DNA of 43,653 bases from Collinsella tanakaei YIT 12063. GTDB taxonomy: Bacteria; Actinomycetota; Coriobacteriia; Coriobacteriales; Coriobacteriaceae. Shown here one piece after another: positions 1 to 43,653 of the stretch. A model generated the notes under the pieces. It did not search any database. It worked only from the letters and a program-made list of their open reading frames with translations, and was not told where the DNA came from. Numbering within the stretch: position 1 is the stretch's first letter; every line of letters begins with the position of its first letter. The stretch lies in assembly GCF_000225705.1 (NCBI RefSeq), contig NZ_JH126467.1, forward strand, positions 139,440 to 183,092, given 5' to 3'. Both the position numbers and the translations under genes were made by a program.

Positions 1-340
1 ACACCTCGACGATGTTGCGGGTGGCGAGCAGGCGCGCCGGGAAGGCGGCGTCGCGCCTGTCGTTCTTGCGCCTCTTCTCGGCCGACGGCTTCTGCATCCT
101 CGAGACGGCGCCCACGACGCAGTCGACGCCCAGCGCGCGCAGCTCGCGGCACAGGGCGAAGCCAGTCGGGCCGCTCTCGTAGACCGCCTTGGGGCTCTCG
201 AAGCCCAGGATCCACTCCGCGATCTCGCCGGCGTCGGTGCCGAACCTCCTCTGGGCCGCCTCGCCGGTGAACGGGTCGAAGGCGCATGCCGAGACGGAGC
301 GCGCGTGTGCGTCGAGGCCGATGGAGGTAATATAGGTCAT
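1..340 (-). CDS. IS110-family transposase, N-terminal part (runs off the left edge)
   Basis: Reading the minus strand from the ATG at 340 gives an open frame of 113 codons to the window edge. It begins MTYITSIGLDAHARS, where the Asp of GLD is the first residue of the DEDD RuvC-like catalytic set. Further on it has VYESGPTGFALCREL and then KNDRRDA, the paired aspartates typical of IS110 recombinases. A GGGAGGAGG-type ribosome site lies just before the ATG. The serine-dependent C-terminal domain is outside the window. The gene is in the same orientation as the transposase end at the right edge, so the two may be copies of one element; the two visible pieces do not overlap, so this cannot be tested here. 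Confidence 0.88.
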   Translation of the reverse strand, partial: MTYITSIGLDAHARSVSACAFDPFTGEAAQRRFGTDAGEIAEWILGFESPKAVYESGPTGFALCRELRALGVDCVVGAVSRMQKPSAEKRRKNDRRDAAFPARLLATRNIVEV

Positions 341-540
341 GGGAGCCTCCTCCCATACGTGCGGTACGGCGGCACCGCAGGTTGACGATACACAACCATT
401 GTTCCCGCCCAGCCCGCGACCCCGTATGCCGCGGGGAGGCTTTCCCTTCAATGGCTTTCTCATATCGTCTCGTGCGCGTAAGCTCGCGATGACTGAGCTT
501 ACCGGTTTTCATTGCTCCTCTGCTGGATTGGGCCAACACG
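341..540 (-). ncRNA. Candidate bridge RNA / left end of the IS110 element
   Basis: This gene-free stretch lies directly upstream of the transposase start, where IS110-group elements encode their bridge RNA (established for that group). It is rich in short perfect hairpins: GTAAGCTC/GAGCTTAC at 478-502 with a 9-nt loop, CCCCG/CGGGG at 420-436, and TGCGGT/ACCGCA at 360-379. I infer transcription on the minus strand, in the transposase direction. The outer boundary of the element and the RNA ends cannot be set from sequence alone, and no donor or target guide was assigned. Confidence 0.35.
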
Positions 541-585
541 TGACCTGGCGCAGCGCTTCGGGGGTTTCCTGGCGGAATCCAGTTG

Positions 586-890
586 GGACAAAAAGTGAGT
601 TAGTGCGGAGGTTTGGCCAAATAATGCGTTAGTGCGGTCTCTAGCGTGACAAATAATGGTTTAGTGCGGGATGATGATGGTTCGTCAAGGTACCATGTGA
701 ATATTGAGTTTGCATCATACGAGGTAAATGAGTTGCGTCGATTTGTATGATGCATAAGAGCGACGACCAGAAGCGCCTTCAAACCGCACTAACTCAATAT
801 TTGTCCAAATCTCCGCACTAAGCGATTATTTGGCACGGCTCCGTTACTACACCAGGCGATTATTTGGCGCTCGTTCAGATTATTTGGCGA
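586..890. mobile_element. Mini-element or IS remnant built from seven copies of one 23 bp repeat
   Basis: Three direct copies of a repeat (core CCAAATAATG then TTAGTGCGG) sit at 586-608, 615-637 and 647-669. Four inverted copies face them at 784-806, 813-835, 847-869 and about 870-890. The outer pairs give an imperfect inverted repeat of about 41 bp. The middle (670-783) holds no convincing gene but has a perfect 10 bp palindrome, TGCATCATAC (711-720) with GTATGATGCA (745-754). Clusters of repeats at both ends are a feature of IS21-like elements, so this may be a deleted or non-autonomous relative. The family is a guess; the repeat structure is directly visible. Confidence 0.6.
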
Positions 891-993
891 TGAGGTGTTT
901 CGAGCCGGCGTCGATCTGATCCGTGCCGGCCGCGACCTTGGATACGCTGCATGCATGATGCAAGAGCTGCTGCAATCAAAATCACTCTGCTAA
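889..993 (+). pseudogene. Possible 3' remnant of an unidentified gene
   Basis: Right after the last repeat of the mini-element, an open frame of 34 codons runs to a TAA at 991-993. It reads DEVFRAGVDLIRAGRDLG and ends QELLQSKSLC. There is no start codon or ribosome site in front of it. It could be the tail of a gene interrupted by the insertion, or chance. I do not recognise the family. Confidence 0.2.
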
Positions 994-1034
994 CAAAAGC
1001 GGGCGCCCGCAGCCAGTTTGATGGCTGCGGGCGC
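994..1034 (-). terminator. Terminator of the ilvDBNC unit
   Basis: A perfect 13 bp stem (GCGCCCGCAGCCA with TGGCTGCGGGCGC, 1003-1015 and 1022-1034) with a 6-nt loop lies about 105 bp after the ilvC stop. On the minus strand it is followed by a U-rich run (CTTTTGTTAG), as expected for intrinsic termination. Confidence 0.85.
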
Positions 1035-1138
1035 ACGGTGCTCGGTACAGATAAGATGGGGAGGAGGCGTCGATCTGTTTAATAGAAGCCTTTGCAAGAA
1101 GATAGAGGGCATCAAGCAGGAGATGCGGATTCGAGCTT

Positions 1139-2134
1139 CTATTTCTTGATCCAGCTGAACATTGAACGGATCTTCTCACCGGTGGTCTCGATGGGGTGCG
1201 TGTTGATGGCTTCGCGCTGCTCAAGGAGCCACTTGTGGTTGTTGTTGCAATCGTCCACAAATTCCTGGGCAAAGCTGCCATCCTGGATGCGGGCCAGGAT
1301 CTGCTTCATGGCGGCGCGGCTCTCATCGTTGATGACCTTGGGGCCGGCGTAGTACTCACCGTACTCGGCGGTGTTGGAGATGGAGTAGTTCATGAAGTGG
1401 ATGCCGCTCTCATACATGAGGTCGACGATCATCTTCATCTCGTGATAGCACTCGAAGTAGGCGAGCTCCTCGGGGTAACCGGCCTCGGTAAGGGTCTCGA
1501 ATCCAGCCTTGACCAGCTCGACCAGGCCACCGCAGAGAACAGCCTGCTCGCCAAAGAGGTCCTCTTCGGTCTCCTGGGCAAAGGTCGCCTTGAGGATTCC
1601 GGAACGGCCGCCGCCGACACCCCAGCAATAGGCCAGGGCGATATCCCAGGCATCGCCGGTAGCGTCTTGGGCCACGCAGGCCAGATCGGGCACGCCGGAG
1701 CCCTCGGTGAACTGACGGCGAACGATATGTCCGGGTCCCTTGGGGGCGCACATGATGACGTTGACGTCCTCGGGAGCCTTGATGTAGCCGTAGTGGATGT
1801 TGAAGCCATGGGCGAAGGCCAGGGTATCGCCGGCCTTGAGGTTGGGAGCGATGAACTCTTCGTAGACCTTGGGCTGGGTCTCATCGGGGGTGAGGATCAT
1901 GATGACGTCGGCCTCGGCCGCGGCCTCTGCCATGCCCATGACCTTGAGGCCGGCCTCGGCAGCCTTCTGAGCGGACGAGGAACCCTCGCGCAAGCCGACG
2001 CGGACGTCGCAGCCGGAGTCCATGAGATTGAGCGCGTGGGCGTGGCCTTGAGAGCCGTAGCCGATGATGGCGATTTTCTTTCCCTGGATGACCTCGGGCT
2101 TGCAATCCTGGTCGTAGTAAACGGTAACTGCCAT
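1139..2134 (-). CDS. ilvC: Ketol-acid reductoisomerase
   Basis: Converts acetolactate or acetohydroxybutyrate to the dihydroxy acid with NAD(P)H and Mg2+, the second common step of valine, leucine and isoleucine synthesis. The protein is 331 residues, the length of class I enzymes. The nucleotide-binding motif GYGSQG is at residues 25-30 and is followed by VGLREGSSS; the helical domain contains the [14 protein letters not shown] and ECYHEMKMI blocks. The frame is open further upstream, but the ATG at 2134 is chosen because AAGGAGAA precedes it and [10 protein letters not shown] is the usual beginning. It is the last gene of the ilvDBNC block, 111 bp after ilvN, and is followed by a strong terminator. 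Confidence 0.96.
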
Positions 2135-2245
2135 TTCCTTGTTCTCCTTACATACGTACCTGCTGGTGTTTGTGTGTGCATGGCTTGCGTTAAGCCTATT
2201 TCTCATAAGCGCGGGCGCGCTTGGTGAGACGGTTGGCGAGGGCGC

Positions 2246-2731
2246 TTACTGATCGTGCGCGCCGCGCGACATGGCGATCTTGCCGGTTCGGGTGAGCTGC
2301 TTGATGCCGTAGCTTCGGAAGAGGTCCTCCATGGCATCGAGTTTGCTGGCGGTTCCGGTCGCCTCGATGGTGAGCGTGTTTTTGCCCACGTCGACGATGT
2401 TGGCGCGGAAGATGCCGGCGATCTCGATGATTTCGTGGCGACGCTCGGGCGGGGCCTGAACTTTGAATAGAACGAGCTCGCGCTCGATGGCATCGGAATG
2501 GGTGAGGTCGGAGATCTTGTACACCGCGACGAGCTTGTGAAGCTGCTTGGTAATCTGCTCGAAGCTCACCTCGTCCGCTTCCACAATGATGGTCATGCGA
2601 GAAAGGGTCTCGTCCTCGGTGGGGGCGACGGTCAGCGATTCGATGTTGAAGCCGCGACGGCTGATCATGCCCGTGACGCGTGACAGAACGCCGCTTTTGT
2701 TCTCGACGAGAACGGAGAGGATGTGAATCAT
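2246..2731 (-). CDS. ilvN: Acetolactate synthase, small regulatory subunit
   Basis: Regulatory subunit of acetohydroxyacid synthase, which activates the large subunit and confers feedback control by valine in known systems. It has 161 residues. An N-terminal ACT domain begins at once (HILSVLVENKSGVLSRV, then GFNIESL), and a second half carries EIAGIFRANIVDVG, as in other IlvN/IlvH proteins. The start lies 2 bp after the ilvB stop, so the subunits are probably translationally coupled and made in step. Confidence 0.95.
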   Translation of the reverse strand: MIHILSVLVENKSGVLSRVTGMISRRGFNIESLTVAPTEDETLSRMTIIVEADEVSFEQITKQLHKLVAVYKISDLTHSDAIERELVLFKVQAPPERRHEIIEIAGIFRANIVDVGKNTLTIEATGTASKLDAMEDLFRSYGIKQLTRTGKIAMSRGAHDQ

Positions 2732-2733
2732 GG

Positions 2734-4602
2734 CTACTCGTCCTCCTTATTTGCAAATGGAGAGGGCGTTGAACCAAAGCCCTTTTCGCTGACGCGCACG
2801 CCGCCTAGGGTGACGTCGAGCGCGCCGATGATGTCGTCGAGCGCGGCGCCGGGGGCGACCATGGGGTAGACGGTCTGCTCGGTTGGGATGATGACGTCGA
2901 GCAGGAACGGGCCGTCGGAGGCGAGCATGGTATCGAGCGCCTCGTCGACCTGGTCTGGATGCTCGATGCGCATGGCCTGCCAGCCATATGCGTCAGCCAG
3001 CTTCACGAAGTCCGGGTTGGCATCCAGTTCCGTGAAGGAGAAGCGATGGTCATAGAAGAGGCTCTGCCACTGGTGGACCATACCGAGCGCACGGTTGTCG
3101 ATGATGACTACCTTAAGGGGTACGCGGTTGATGGCGGCCGTGGCCATCTCCTGCGAGTTCATCTGGAAGGAACCGTCGCCTGCGATGCAGACCACCTGGT
3201 CTTGCGGACAGCCGATCTGAGCGCCGATGGCCGCGGGGAAGCCAAAGCCCATGGTGCCCAGACCGCCCGAGGAGATGAAGGTGCGGGCGTGCTCGCGATG
3301 GATATTCTGGTGCGCCCACATCTGGTGCTGTCCTACTTCGGTGGTGACGATAGAAGCCTCCGGATCTAGCTTATCGGACAGTTTGGAGAGGACGATCTCA
3401 GGTGCGATCTTGTCCGGATAGTCAGCGAAGTCTGCGGCGTAGAACGGCCAGCGATCGCGCCAAGAAAAGACGGTCTTCTCCCACTCTTGATCGATGGGCG
3501 CGGCGCCGTCTTTTGCAAGGCGATCGCAGATTGCGCCAAGCACCACCTTGGCATCGCCCACGATGGGGACGGCCGGGTCGATGATCTTGCCGATCTCCGC
3601 CGGGTCGATGTCGATGTGGATGATCTTGGCGTGCGGCGCGAACTCGGAGACTTTGCCGGTGACGCGATCGGAGAAGCGCGCGCCCACGGCGATGAGCAGG
3701 TCGCATTCGGTGACCGCCATGTTGGCGTACTTGGAGCCGTGCATGCCCACGGGTCCCAGGTTGAGCGGATTGGAGCAGCGCATGGCGCCCTTGCCCATAA
3801 GCGAGGTGACCACCGGGATGCGCATGTGCTCCGCCAGCTGCGTCAGTTCGGCGCAGGCGTGGCTTGAGACAATGCCGCCGCCAGCGTAGATCAACGGGCG
3901 CTTGGCGGACTCTATCAGGTTCGCGGCCTGGCGCACTTGCTTGGCGTTGCCCTTGTAGGTGGGCTTGTAGCTGGGAATGTTTATGGAATCCGGGTAGTGG
4001 AAGACCATTTGGGAGCCCGAAAGGTCGCTGGGGATGTCGATCAGCACGGGGCCGGGGCGACCGGTGGAGGCGATGTAGAAGGCCTCGCGGAATGTGCGGG
4101 TGAGGTCGTCGCAAGACTGCAGCAGGAAACTGTGCTTGACCACGGGCATGGTGATGCCGACAATGTCGGATTCCTGGAATGCGTCCGTGCCGATGACGCC
4201 GCGTGTGACCTGGCCGGTGATAACCACCAGGGGCACGGAATCCATAAAGGCGGTTGCGATGCCGGTTACGGTGTTGGTGGCGCCCGGCCCGCTGGTGACC
4301 AGGACTACGCCGACTTTGCCGGTTGCGCGCGCGTAGCCGTCCGCCATGTGCGTGGCGCCCTGCTCGTGGCGGGCCAGCACGTGGCGAATCTTCTTTGAGT
4401 CATACAGCGCGTCGTAAATCTTGATGGCCTGGCCGCCGGGATAGCCAAAGATGGTGTCGACGCCTTCGGCCTCAAGGCTTGCGATGATGGCCTGCGCGCC
4501 GGACATGGTCTTGCCCTCATGCTCCGTGGCGCTGCCCGGCCCAAAGGGCTTGCCCTCTATAGCGCGCTGGCGGCGGGCGAGTTTTTCATCCAGGTTTGTC
4601 AT
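2734..4602 (-). CDS. ilvB: Acetolactate synthase, large catalytic subunit
   Basis: Thiamine-diphosphate enzyme that joins two pyruvates, or pyruvate and 2-ketobutyrate, at the entry to branched-chain amino acid synthesis. It has 622 residues. GYPGGQAIK and the TPP-activating glutamate E80 in RHEQGATHM are present, with the central FAD/Rossmann part and the C-terminal TPP-Mg motif [12 protein letters not shown]...NR. The first 32 residues before MSGAQAII are an extension beyond the usual family start. The ATG at 4602 overlaps the ilvD stop (ATGA), supporting it, though the ribosome site is distant. Its partner ilvN follows directly. Confidence 0.95.
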
Positions 4603-43091: not shown

Positions 43092-43123
43092 ATCGTTTAG
43101 AACTGCATTAAAATGCCCTTGCA

Positions 43124-43157
43124 AGACTCCGTTGCGTTCGTGCGGCGGTCTCTTTTT
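43124..43157 (+). terminator. Terminator of ldh
   Basis: An imperfect stem beginning AGAC and closing with GGTCT is followed by TTTTTAA, 33 bp after the ldh stop. Confidence 0.5.
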
Positions 43158-43173
43158 AATATGAGTTGAACAT

Positions 43174-43229
43174 TGTCAAGTGGCAAAACGTCCCCGCCCC
43201 CCGGGGAGCTACCGCGGGGGGCGGGGACG
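43174..43229 (-). terminator. Very strong GC hairpin with adjoining TTGACA, possible IS110 right-end region
   Basis: CGTCCCCGCCCCCC (43189-43202) and its exact complement (43216-43229) form a 14 bp stem. On the minus strand GTTTTGCC follows, which fits a terminator for the transposase entering from the right. Just beyond lies TTGACA (43179-43174, minus). In circularised IS110-group elements a -35 box at the right end joins a -10 in the left end; whether this one does is unproven. Confidence 0.45.
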
Positions 43230-43469
43230 ACCTATCTTCACCCGGGGGACGCGCCGCTTGAGGGCGTGTCTGCTCGACGCACGTTCGGCACTCTAATATC
43301 CGCGGGTCGGAACCGCATTTCGTTGCTACGGCTGGGGGCCTCCGGCTTCATCGCAGTCTCGTGGCGGGCGTGGCGGTCCCCCGCTGCCCAGAAAAAGGAA
43401 CTGGAATGGCCTCCCAACGGCCTCGAGCGCGGCGCGCCCCGGGGTCGGACTCCTATCTCGCCGCGGGCG
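43230..43469. other. GC-rich stretch without a recognised gene, 3' flank of the IS110 transposase
   Basis: About 240 bp between the hairpin and the transposase stop. It probably holds the right end of the element and its junction with host DNA. No open frame with recognisable features was seen on either strand. Confidence 0.35.
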
Positions 43470-43653
43470 CTACCGGACCATGAGCGCTATCGCCCAGACC
43501 CAGCAGGCCATCTCGCGGGCCGTCGCGCAGTTCGCCACGCAGGGCCTCTTTCCCGCCTGCGACATGGCGTCGCGCCTGTCCTGCAGGCGGCGGTTGCACT
43601 TCGCGGCGTGCCTCGACGCCGCCGGCGCGACCCCGTGGCCCGGCCTCGGCTTC
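43470..43653 (-). CDS. IS110-family transposase, C-terminal end (runs off the right edge)
   Basis: The minus strand is open from the window edge to a TAG at 43472-43470, giving 60 residues. It includes CNRRLQDRRDAMSQAGKRP and then ATAREMACWVWAIALM, the closing helix pattern of IS110/IS116/IS902 transposases. Orientation equals that of the transposase start at the left edge. With 113 N-terminal and 60 C-terminal residues visible, roughly 230 residues of a usual 400 are out of view. Confidence 0.82.
   Translation of the reverse strand, partial: KPRPGHGVAPAASRHAAKCNRRLQDRRDAMSQAGKRPCVANCATAREMACWVWAIALMVR

What the first reader, a model, noticed from the sequence alone, without database searches (positions are those of the whole stretch)
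1..540. IS110 copy with a likely bridge RNA in its left end
IS110-group recombinases use a bridge RNA encoded beside the transposase. Here the 200 bp upstream of the transposase start is gene-free and holds three perfect short hairpins, one with an 8 bp stem and 9-nt loop. This could be a bridge RNA from a Coriobacteriia element.
Basis: partly seen in the sequence, partly recalled or inferred. Interest (0 to 1): 0.6.

Follow-up and report, generated by a model that had tools for sequence, protein, structure and literature searches.

The report
RNA-guided jumping element targeting terminators

Summary
The transposase fragment (window 2-340, minus) is real and belongs to the IS110 family. The left end is only 130 nt (341-470), so the 8-bp hairpin at 478-502 lies outside the element. 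I found no guide signal in the left end. Copies in Collinsella and other Coriobacteriia have long subterminal inverted repeats (17 bp here) and a non-coding right end of about 280-340 nt encoding a structured RNA with strong covariation. Two of its segments match each copy's own flanks. One pairs with the right flank (26 guides, 0 of 20,000 shuffles as good). The other pairs with the left flank in one register (z = 7.3 at one of 341 positions; left end at most 2.0 of 119). A third covaries with the right terminus. The window element's RNA lies 460 bp beyond the window, but a related copy's RNA is inside it (43313-43418). Right flanks start with an A-run (50 of 57), followed by a terminator-like hairpin more often than controls (26 of 57 strict). 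Organisation and guide order are IS1111-type, but the transposase (366-372 aa) falls outside both the IS4321/IS5708/IS1492 and IS621 clades. The left end holds a conserved leader that probably occludes the transposase ribosome-binding site.

The parts
2..340 (-). N-terminal 113 residues of the IS110-family (DEDD) transposase; the gene continues beyond the window into an assembly gap
   Evidence: full-length relatives
341..470 (-). Left end and leader of the element (first base of AGACG at 470, transposase ATG at 340-338)
   Evidence: alignment of left ends of copies with different flanks; coordinates checked
449..465 (-). Left subterminal inverted repeat ATATGAGAAAGCCATTG, 17 of 17 matching the right-end copy (outside the window at G000:C1, about 138691-138707)
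435..441 (-). Upstream arm (AGCCTCC) of a leader stem that would pair with the ribosome-binding-site region
   Evidence: best stem of this left end; by itself not unusual against shuffles, 10% as good
344..350 (-). Downstream arm (GGAGGCT) of that stem, overlapping the transposase ribosome-binding site
471..472 (-). Left-flank bases CG abutting the element, the part of the target matched by guide 2 (RNA ...CG|AGAC)
478..502 (.).
43473..43653 (-). C-terminal part of the transposase of a second, related copy (subfamily S2); stop codon at 43470-43472
43313..43418 (-). Guide RNA (target-binding domain) of the S2 copy, inside the window
   Evidence: covariance model R1, E = 5.5e-18 at G000:C1:182752-182857; read
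43391..43401 (-). Guide 1 of the S2 copy (GUUCCUUUUUC), pairs with the top strand of its right flank
43360..43364 (-). Guide 2 of the S2 copy (CCACG), directly 5' of the conserved AGAC (43356-43359), pairs with the bottom strand of the left flank
43293..43301 (-). Donor-matching segment GGATATTAG of the S2 copy (matches its right terminus ATATTA)
43185..43228 (-). Hairpin plus T-run at the 3' end of the S2 non-coding region, terminator-like
   Evidence: read from sequence
43159..43175 (-). Right subterminal inverted repeat CAATGTTCAACTCATAT of the S2 copy
43107..43156 (-). Right flank of the S2 copy: A-run and a weak hairpin (it does not pass the strict stem score)

Best explanation
The window begins inside the left end of a 1.5-1.6-kb RNA-guided insertion sequence of the IS110 family with IS1111-type organisation. 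The transposase gene and a structured guide RNA are on one strand, the RNA lying between the transposase stop codon and the right terminus. The RNA folds as an outer stem enclosing guide 1, an apical stem, then guide 2 followed by a fixed AGAC. Guide 1 pairs with the top strand of the right flank. Guide 2 pairs with the bottom strand of the left flank, abutting the insertion point; the AGAC repeats the first four bases of the element. A further segment (AUAUNN) matches the element's own right terminus. The transposase and RNA would form a complex that excises a circle and inserts it, without duplication, into an A-run (5'-..CG|AAAAAGG-3' for the window's subfamily in this genome). Such A-runs are often the T-tract of an intrinsic terminator on the other strand, so insertion would leave the terminator intact. 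The left end is a leader whose folding probably occludes the transposase ribosome-binding site. Shown by computation: element ends, RNA fold, guide-flank matches, terminator enrichment. Inferred from published IS1111 work: transcription, RNP formation, circle intermediate, catalysis, and the leader's effect.
For: Ends: a 17-bp perfect inverted repeat in the window element, and a repeat score of 14 or more in 47 of 57 loci (2 too short to test, 8 lower), plus 13 loci taken, 12 of them from outside Collinsella. Empty sites for one insertion show insertion inside an A-run with no evident gain or loss, to within the varying A-run length. RNA fold: 94.0% of cells paired against 74.5% shuffled; 62 double-change cells against 17.5; slid controls at most 44.3%. 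Guide 1: 26 unique guides, own score 7.73 against 6.73, 0 of 20,000 permutations; 12 dissimilar guides, 8 of 20,000. Unguided scan of 484 tests: the top two are guide 1 with the right flank, top strand; the third lies in the guide 2 region with the left flank, bottom strand. Guide 2: z 6.4, 0 of 20,000, while the eight neighbouring registers reach at most 2.0. Left-end control negative. Donor segment: AUAUCA with ATATCA (L148), AUAUGA with ATATGA (L150, S5). Terminators: right-flank folding z mean -2.04, 24 of 57 at or below -2, against 1-7 of 56-57 in each of five control windows; strict stems 26 of 57 against 4.9% of random positions; against AAAAAG[GC] sites 7/12 vs 9/35 (p 0.046) and 6/13 vs 17/123 (p 0.0095).
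Against: No transcript, RNP or transposition data. My first location for guide 2 (3' of AGAC) was not significant (559-4266 of 20,000 by window length). Four of 57 copies do not match at the first left-flank base even with wobble (L033, L078, L079, L095). In the window element guide 2 matches only two contiguous bases. One scan hit outside the proposed guides (left flank, top strand, column 428) reached 0 of 1000 and 1 of 1000, third rank; it is unexplained. 31 of 57 insertions lack a strict terminator stem, and a lenient hairpin test did not discriminate (49 of 57 against 1390 of 2000 random). With the longer motif [CT]GAAAAAG[GC] the G016 comparison is not significant (only 3 control sites, p 0.45). 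S4 copies sit in a repeated GTCCC motif, not clear terminators. Copies share ancestry, so permutations overstate independence; the RNA structure was drawn by me from the same alignment it was counted on.
Confidence: 0.88

Rival explanations
1. The left end encodes the bridge RNA, as in IS621-type elements; the right-end RNA is something else.
For: The left end (116-130 nt from repeat to ATG) has a conserved structured leader.
Against: No position of the left end matches the flanks better than permuted pairings at 0 of 1000 (168 tests; fixed-register maximum z 1.97 of 119), whereas the right end does. In the 29 copies with an unbroken frame the right end is longer, 278-342 nt.
Confidence: 0.03
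2. The right-end RNA is the guide, but terminators are not recognised as such: the guide needs only an A-run plus G/C, and intergenic terminators remain because insertions into genes are lost.
For: Guide 1 is mostly CCUUUUU-type sequence. Motif-matched AAAAAG[GC] sites already carry stems in 9/35 and 17/123 cases. S4 and S5 guides match other sequences.
Against: Stems are more frequent at insertions than at motif-matched sites in both genomes, but counterselection in genes would give the same bias.
Confidence: 0.45
3. The left-end hairpins are only a translation-control leader (occluding the ribosome-binding site), comparable to that shown for ISPpu9. This is compatible with the best explanation and explains what the first reader saw.
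For: The best stem between the post-repeat region and the last 30 nt before the ATG is 6-14 bp in the 24 left ends tested and begins at left-end position 21-37 in 22 of them; mean score 23.6 against 15.8 with the upstream part shuffled. ISPpu9 has an experimentally supported 5'-UTR fold over its RBS (PMC8450116, abstract and passages).
Against: In 10 of 24 left ends, including the window's, at least 10% of shuffles do as well. A best stem always exists by construction. No pair-by-pair covariation count was made for it.
Confidence: 0.6

Closest known systems
IS1111-type elements and their seekRNA (ISEc11, ISKpn4, ISPa11; PMC11187229)
   Same: Subterminal inverted repeats, long non-coding region downstream of the transposase, top-strand guide 5' of bottom-strand guide, no evident target duplication, GL-P----SG motif in the C-terminal domain (GLTPSEHSSG).
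   Different: Transposase 366-372 aa rather than 330-350; falls outside the IS4321/IS5708/IS1492 clade; inverted repeat up to 17 bp here rather than usually 11-13; targets terminator-like A-runs; guide 2 runs directly into a copy of the left terminus (AGAC).
IS621 and IS110-group bridge RNA (PMC11208160)
   Same: DEDD transposase, structured RNA with two target-matching strands, and a donor-matching segment.
   Different: RNA in the right end, not the left; guide order reversed (order for the IS110 type as reported in PMC11187229); long inverted repeats; distant protein (IS621 matched only by profile, E = 7.7e-11).
ISSso6 / ISEc45 and related elements (plasmid records of Shigella, E. coli, Labrenzia, Paracoccus, Pseudonocardia)
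   Same: Closest named transposases seen in the plasmid collection (34-45% identity over 96-99% of the query for the four compared), one supported clade with ours; ISEc45, Labrenzia and Pseudonocardia also have TATG... inverted repeats of 9-10 bp and a 250-320-nt right end.
   Different: Guides and targets of these were not examined; ISSso6 and Paracoccus showed no clear TATG repeat.
ISPpu9 of Pseudomonas putida (PMC8450116)
   Same: Small RNA encoded downstream of tnp, orphan RNA copies elsewhere in the genome, 5'-UTR fold over the ribosome-binding site.
   Different: Inserts in REP sequences; its RNAs were described there as regulators.

Membership tests
IS110 family (broad sense) | DEDD_Tnp_IS110 (PF01548) and Transposase_20 (PF02371) domains | tested here: met
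   Full-length relative L066: 45.3 and 72.4 bits, both above cut-off; NF033542 205 bits. The window fragment alone is below cut-off.
IS1111 group | Subterminal inverted repeats of sufficient length | tested here: met
   17/17 bp in the window element; score 14 or more in 47 of 57 loci, S1-S5
IS1111 group | Terminal extensions of 7 (or 6) bp left and 3 bp right | tested here: inconclusive
   5 and 2 bp outside the full 17-bp repeat, equal to 6 and 3 if the repeat is trimmed by one base; A-run makes the right edge uncertain
IS1111 group | Long non-coding region downstream of tnp that encodes the guide RNA | tested here: met
   Right end 278-342 nt in 29 unbroken copies against left end 116-130 nt; covarying RNA; guide matches
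IS1111 group | Top-strand guide precedes bottom-strand guide | tested here: met
IS1111 group | Transposase of 330-350 aa within the IS1111 cluster | tested here: not met
   366-372 aa in S1-S5; tree places it with ISSso6/ISEc45, apart from IS4321/IS5708/IS1492, 100/99 support; the program warns of long branches among the outgroups, and ISEc11 and IS1111 themselves were not in the tree
IS110 group (IS621 type) | Bridge RNA in a long left end, very short inverted repeats | tested here: not met
seekRNA / bridge RNA system | RNA co-purifies with the transposase and is essential for transposition | not testable with these tools
   needs experiment
Known Rfam family | Match at gathering score | tested here: not met

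The most novel reading that the evidence does not exclude
A separate lineage of RNA-guided IS110-family elements, outside the IS4321-type and IS621 transposase clades, has settled in gut Coriobacteriia by programming its guide RNA against the T-tracts of intrinsic terminators, so one guide offers many low-cost sites. Its left-flank guide continues into a copy of the element's own first bases, so one RNA strand reads the flank-element junction and could license both excision and insertion.
Probability: 0.4. Interest if true: 0.65.

Novelty: new variant of a known kind. Interest (0 to 1): 0.5.

Why it matters
It gives a statistically readable guide-target code for RNA-guided insertion elements in a lineage apart from the well-studied ones, with natural changes of guide and flank together (for example L087, L097, L098, L099). 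If terminators are the real target class, it shows an RNA-guided element using transcription terminators as safe harbours, and it supplies compact recombinases with short weak A:U guides to test how little pairing is enough. It also corrects the search rule: look at both ends before calling a bridge RNA.

Tried and rejected
Left-end bridge RNA: rejected. Rfam identification: no family. Guide 2 placed 3' of AGAC: not significant, replaced by the segment 5' of AGAC after the unguided scan. Lenient hairpin test: not discriminating, replaced by a strict stem score and motif-matched controls. Gene context: a right-hand gene ends towards the insertion within 200 nt in 33 of 51 cases, against 630 of 1500 random positions and 66 of 144 motif sites; weak, not used. 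Empty site for the window element: none found in 43 genus genomes, nor for L021; empty sites for L087 used instead. A left-donor guide in the conserved GCGUCGA: considered by eye and dropped, because it fails in S5 and in the window type. PDB by single sequence: no hit; by profile, ISCro4 and IS621.

Rows dropped: of 57 loci, 46 entered the element set; left out were L019, L034, L065, L086, L089, L091, L096, L101 (an end not found) and L081, L090, L093 (wrong right end picked). Of the 80 loci, 47 were tested and 13 taken. L100 and L102 were dropped as duplicate sites, leaving 57 copies. Alignment A2 used 25 of the 28 stretches (L097, L098, L149 left out). The leader test used 24 of the 25 left ends (L130 left out, start codon unsure).

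Papers on terminator targeting: searches showed none in the listings or passages I saw; that library lacks most subscription papers. Papers seen: PMC11187229, parts 1-5 of 9 and passages; PMC11208160, PMC8450116 (with abstract), PMC1525189, PMC10969869, PMC5896051, passages only. That IS5708 and IS1492 are IS1111-group is recalled; that IS4321 and IS5075 are comes from a reference title seen.

Full report
What is there. The window is G000:C1:139440-183092 of a 2.49-Mb draft genome. Its first 340 bases encode, on the minus strand, the N-terminal 113 residues of an IS110-family transposase. Seventeen places in this genome match it: two at 100%, fourteen at 69-72% and one 32-residue remnant. In the genus, 18 of 43 genomes, this one included, have a match. 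The assembly has an N-gap inside the transposase just outside the window, so the copy cannot be read through.

Ends. Copies with different flanks share AGACG-ATATGAG... on the left and ...CTCATAT-TA on the right. The window element has a perfect 17-bp subterminal inverted repeat, ATATGAGAAAGCCATTG. The repeat score is 14 or more in 47 of 57 loci; 2 were too short and 8 scored lower. I group the elements as S1 (window type), S2 (ATATGAGTTGAACATTG), S3 (C. aerofaciens), S4 (ATATGAGCAGGACAT) and S5 (TATGACCCAATCCG). The left end of the window element runs from 470 to 341. For insertion L087, related genomes give uninterrupted sites: 8 matched nearly the whole joined query, and 11 loci spanned the joint in the alignment. 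They show insertion within an A-run with no evident gain or loss, to within the varying A-run length.

The RNA. Downstream of the transposase lie 278-342 nt, measured in 29 copies with an unbroken frame, of conserved non-coding DNA. In 25 diverse sequences an outer stem and an apical stem, drawn by me on the alignment, are paired in 94.0% of cells (shuffled 74.5%). There are 62 double-change cells (shuffled 17.5), and slid versions reach at most 44.3%. A covariance model finds the RNA in 17 of 43 genus genomes and at 18 places in this one. The window element's RNA is at C1:138871-138980, 460 bp outside the window. The RNA of an S2 copy at C1:182752-182857 is window 43313-43418. The window therefore starts in one element and ends in another, both on the minus strand. 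Rfam has no matching family.

Guides. I took 57 copies with distinct right flanks, representing 26 distinct guide-1 sequences. The 11 nt before the apical stem pair with the top strand of the right flank: mean own score 7.73 against 6.73 permuted, 0 of 20,000 permutations as good; with 12 dissimilar guides, 8 of 20,000. L087 scores 11 of 11 (GGCCUCUUUUA with TAAAAGAGGCC); the window element scores 10 of 11. A scan of positions along the RNA, both flanks and both strands (484 tests), put guide 1 first and second, and the left flank, bottom strand, near the conserved AGAC third. At the register that abuts AGAC, the RNA matches the left flank with z 6.4 and 0 of 20,000 permutations. The eight neighbouring registers reach at most 2.0. 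Examples: L087 ACAAA|AGAC; L097 GUC with GTC; L099 CCUCGAC with CCTCAAC (one wobble). Four of 57 fail at the first base (L033, L078, L079, L095). The same scan on the left end gives no test at 0 of 1000 (168 tests), and its fixed-register maximum is 1.97 over 119 positions, against 7.33 at one of 341 in the right end (next best 3.04). One right-end position outside the proposed guides (column 428, left flank, top strand) reached 0 of 1000 and 1 of 1000 and is unexplained. The segment GGAUAUUAG matches the right terminus ATATTA; where the terminus is ATATCA (L148) or ATATGA (L150, S5) the RNA has the same change; L144 has one mismatch here. The order, top-strand guide before bottom-strand guide, is that reported for IS1111-type seekRNAs (PMC11187229, parts read).

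Target. The right flank has an A-run within its first 8 nt in 50 of 57 copies, often followed by a hairpin, which on the other strand is a hairpin followed by a T-tract. The folding z of right flanks averages -2.04 (24 of 57 at or below -2); left flanks (5 of 57) and four further control windows (1-7 of 56-57 each) do not show this. A strict stem occurs in 26 of 57 against 4.9% of random positions. Against sites with the same AAAAAG[GC] motif it is 7 of 12 against 9 of 35 (p 0.046) in G016, and 6 of 13 against 17 of 123 (p 0.0095) in G000; with the rarer motif [CT]GAAAAAG[GC] the control sites have it in 1 of 3 (p 0.45) and 0 of 14 (p 0.006). So terminators are enriched beyond the motif, but loss of insertions in genes could explain that. 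S4 copies sit in a GTCCC repeat instead. Seven searches found no paper describing terminator targeting by this family; the library is partial.

Left end. The leader is conserved. The best stem between the post-repeat region and the ribosome-binding-site region is 6-14 bp in the 24 left ends tested and starts at position 21-37 in 22 of them; the mean score is 23.6 against 15.8 shuffled, though for 10 single sequences, including the window's, at least 10% of shuffles do as well. A comparable 5'-UTR fold lowers transposase translation in ISPpu9 (PMC8450116, abstract and passages).

Kinship. A full-length relative carries PF01548 and PF02371 and the GLTPSEHSSG motif. The S1-S5 proteins are 366-372 aa long. 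A tree of 34 proteins groups them with ISSso6, ISEc45 and proteins of Labrenzia, Paracoccus and Pseudonocardia (100/99), apart from IS4321, IS5708 and IS1492 and from IS621; the program warns of long branches. ISEc45, Labrenzia and Pseudonocardia also have TATG-type repeats and long right ends. The organisation is IS1111-type; the lineage is not shown to be. ISEc11 and IS1111 were not in the tree.

Verdict. It is a new variant of a known kind.

Noticed in passing
window 583-888: A repeat with several 20-27-bp units at each end in inverted orientation (CCGCACTAA.../TTATTTGGC) around a variable middle. The search listed 82 matches in this genome (pieces and itself included), the longer ones about 67-75% identical over about 250 bp: an abundant unclassified interspersed repeat.
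   Followed up: partly
L033 (G000:C4, near 87216-87431): Deletion derivative of about 520 bp that keeps both ends and the guide RNA but only about 32 transposase residues: a non-autonomous element carrying its own guide.
   Followed up: partly
L211, L216, L217, L222 (G010, G003, G008, G020): Guide-RNA matches at places where no transposase match was listed, possibly orphan RNAs or decayed copies.
   Followed up: partly
window 43185-43228 (minus) and equivalents in other copies: The non-coding region ends in a strong hairpin with a T-run just before TTGACA and the right inverted repeat: a terminator-like 3' end for the RNA, followed by a -35-like box that could form a junction promoter in the circle.
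   Followed up: no
G016 (Collinsella phocaeensis-type genome): Vacant YGAAAAAG sites occur at about 18 per Mb (7 in 400 kb) while a dozen copies occupy such sites, so this target class may be partly saturated.
   Followed up: no
L078, L079: Copies whose guide 2 (UCA) does not match their left flank (TG, CG), as if inserted by another copy's RNA or changed after insertion.
   Followed up: no
window 1 and window 43653: Both ends of the window fall inside insertion elements in the same orientation, at or near assembly N-gaps; about 44 kb lie between two related repeats.
   Followed up: no
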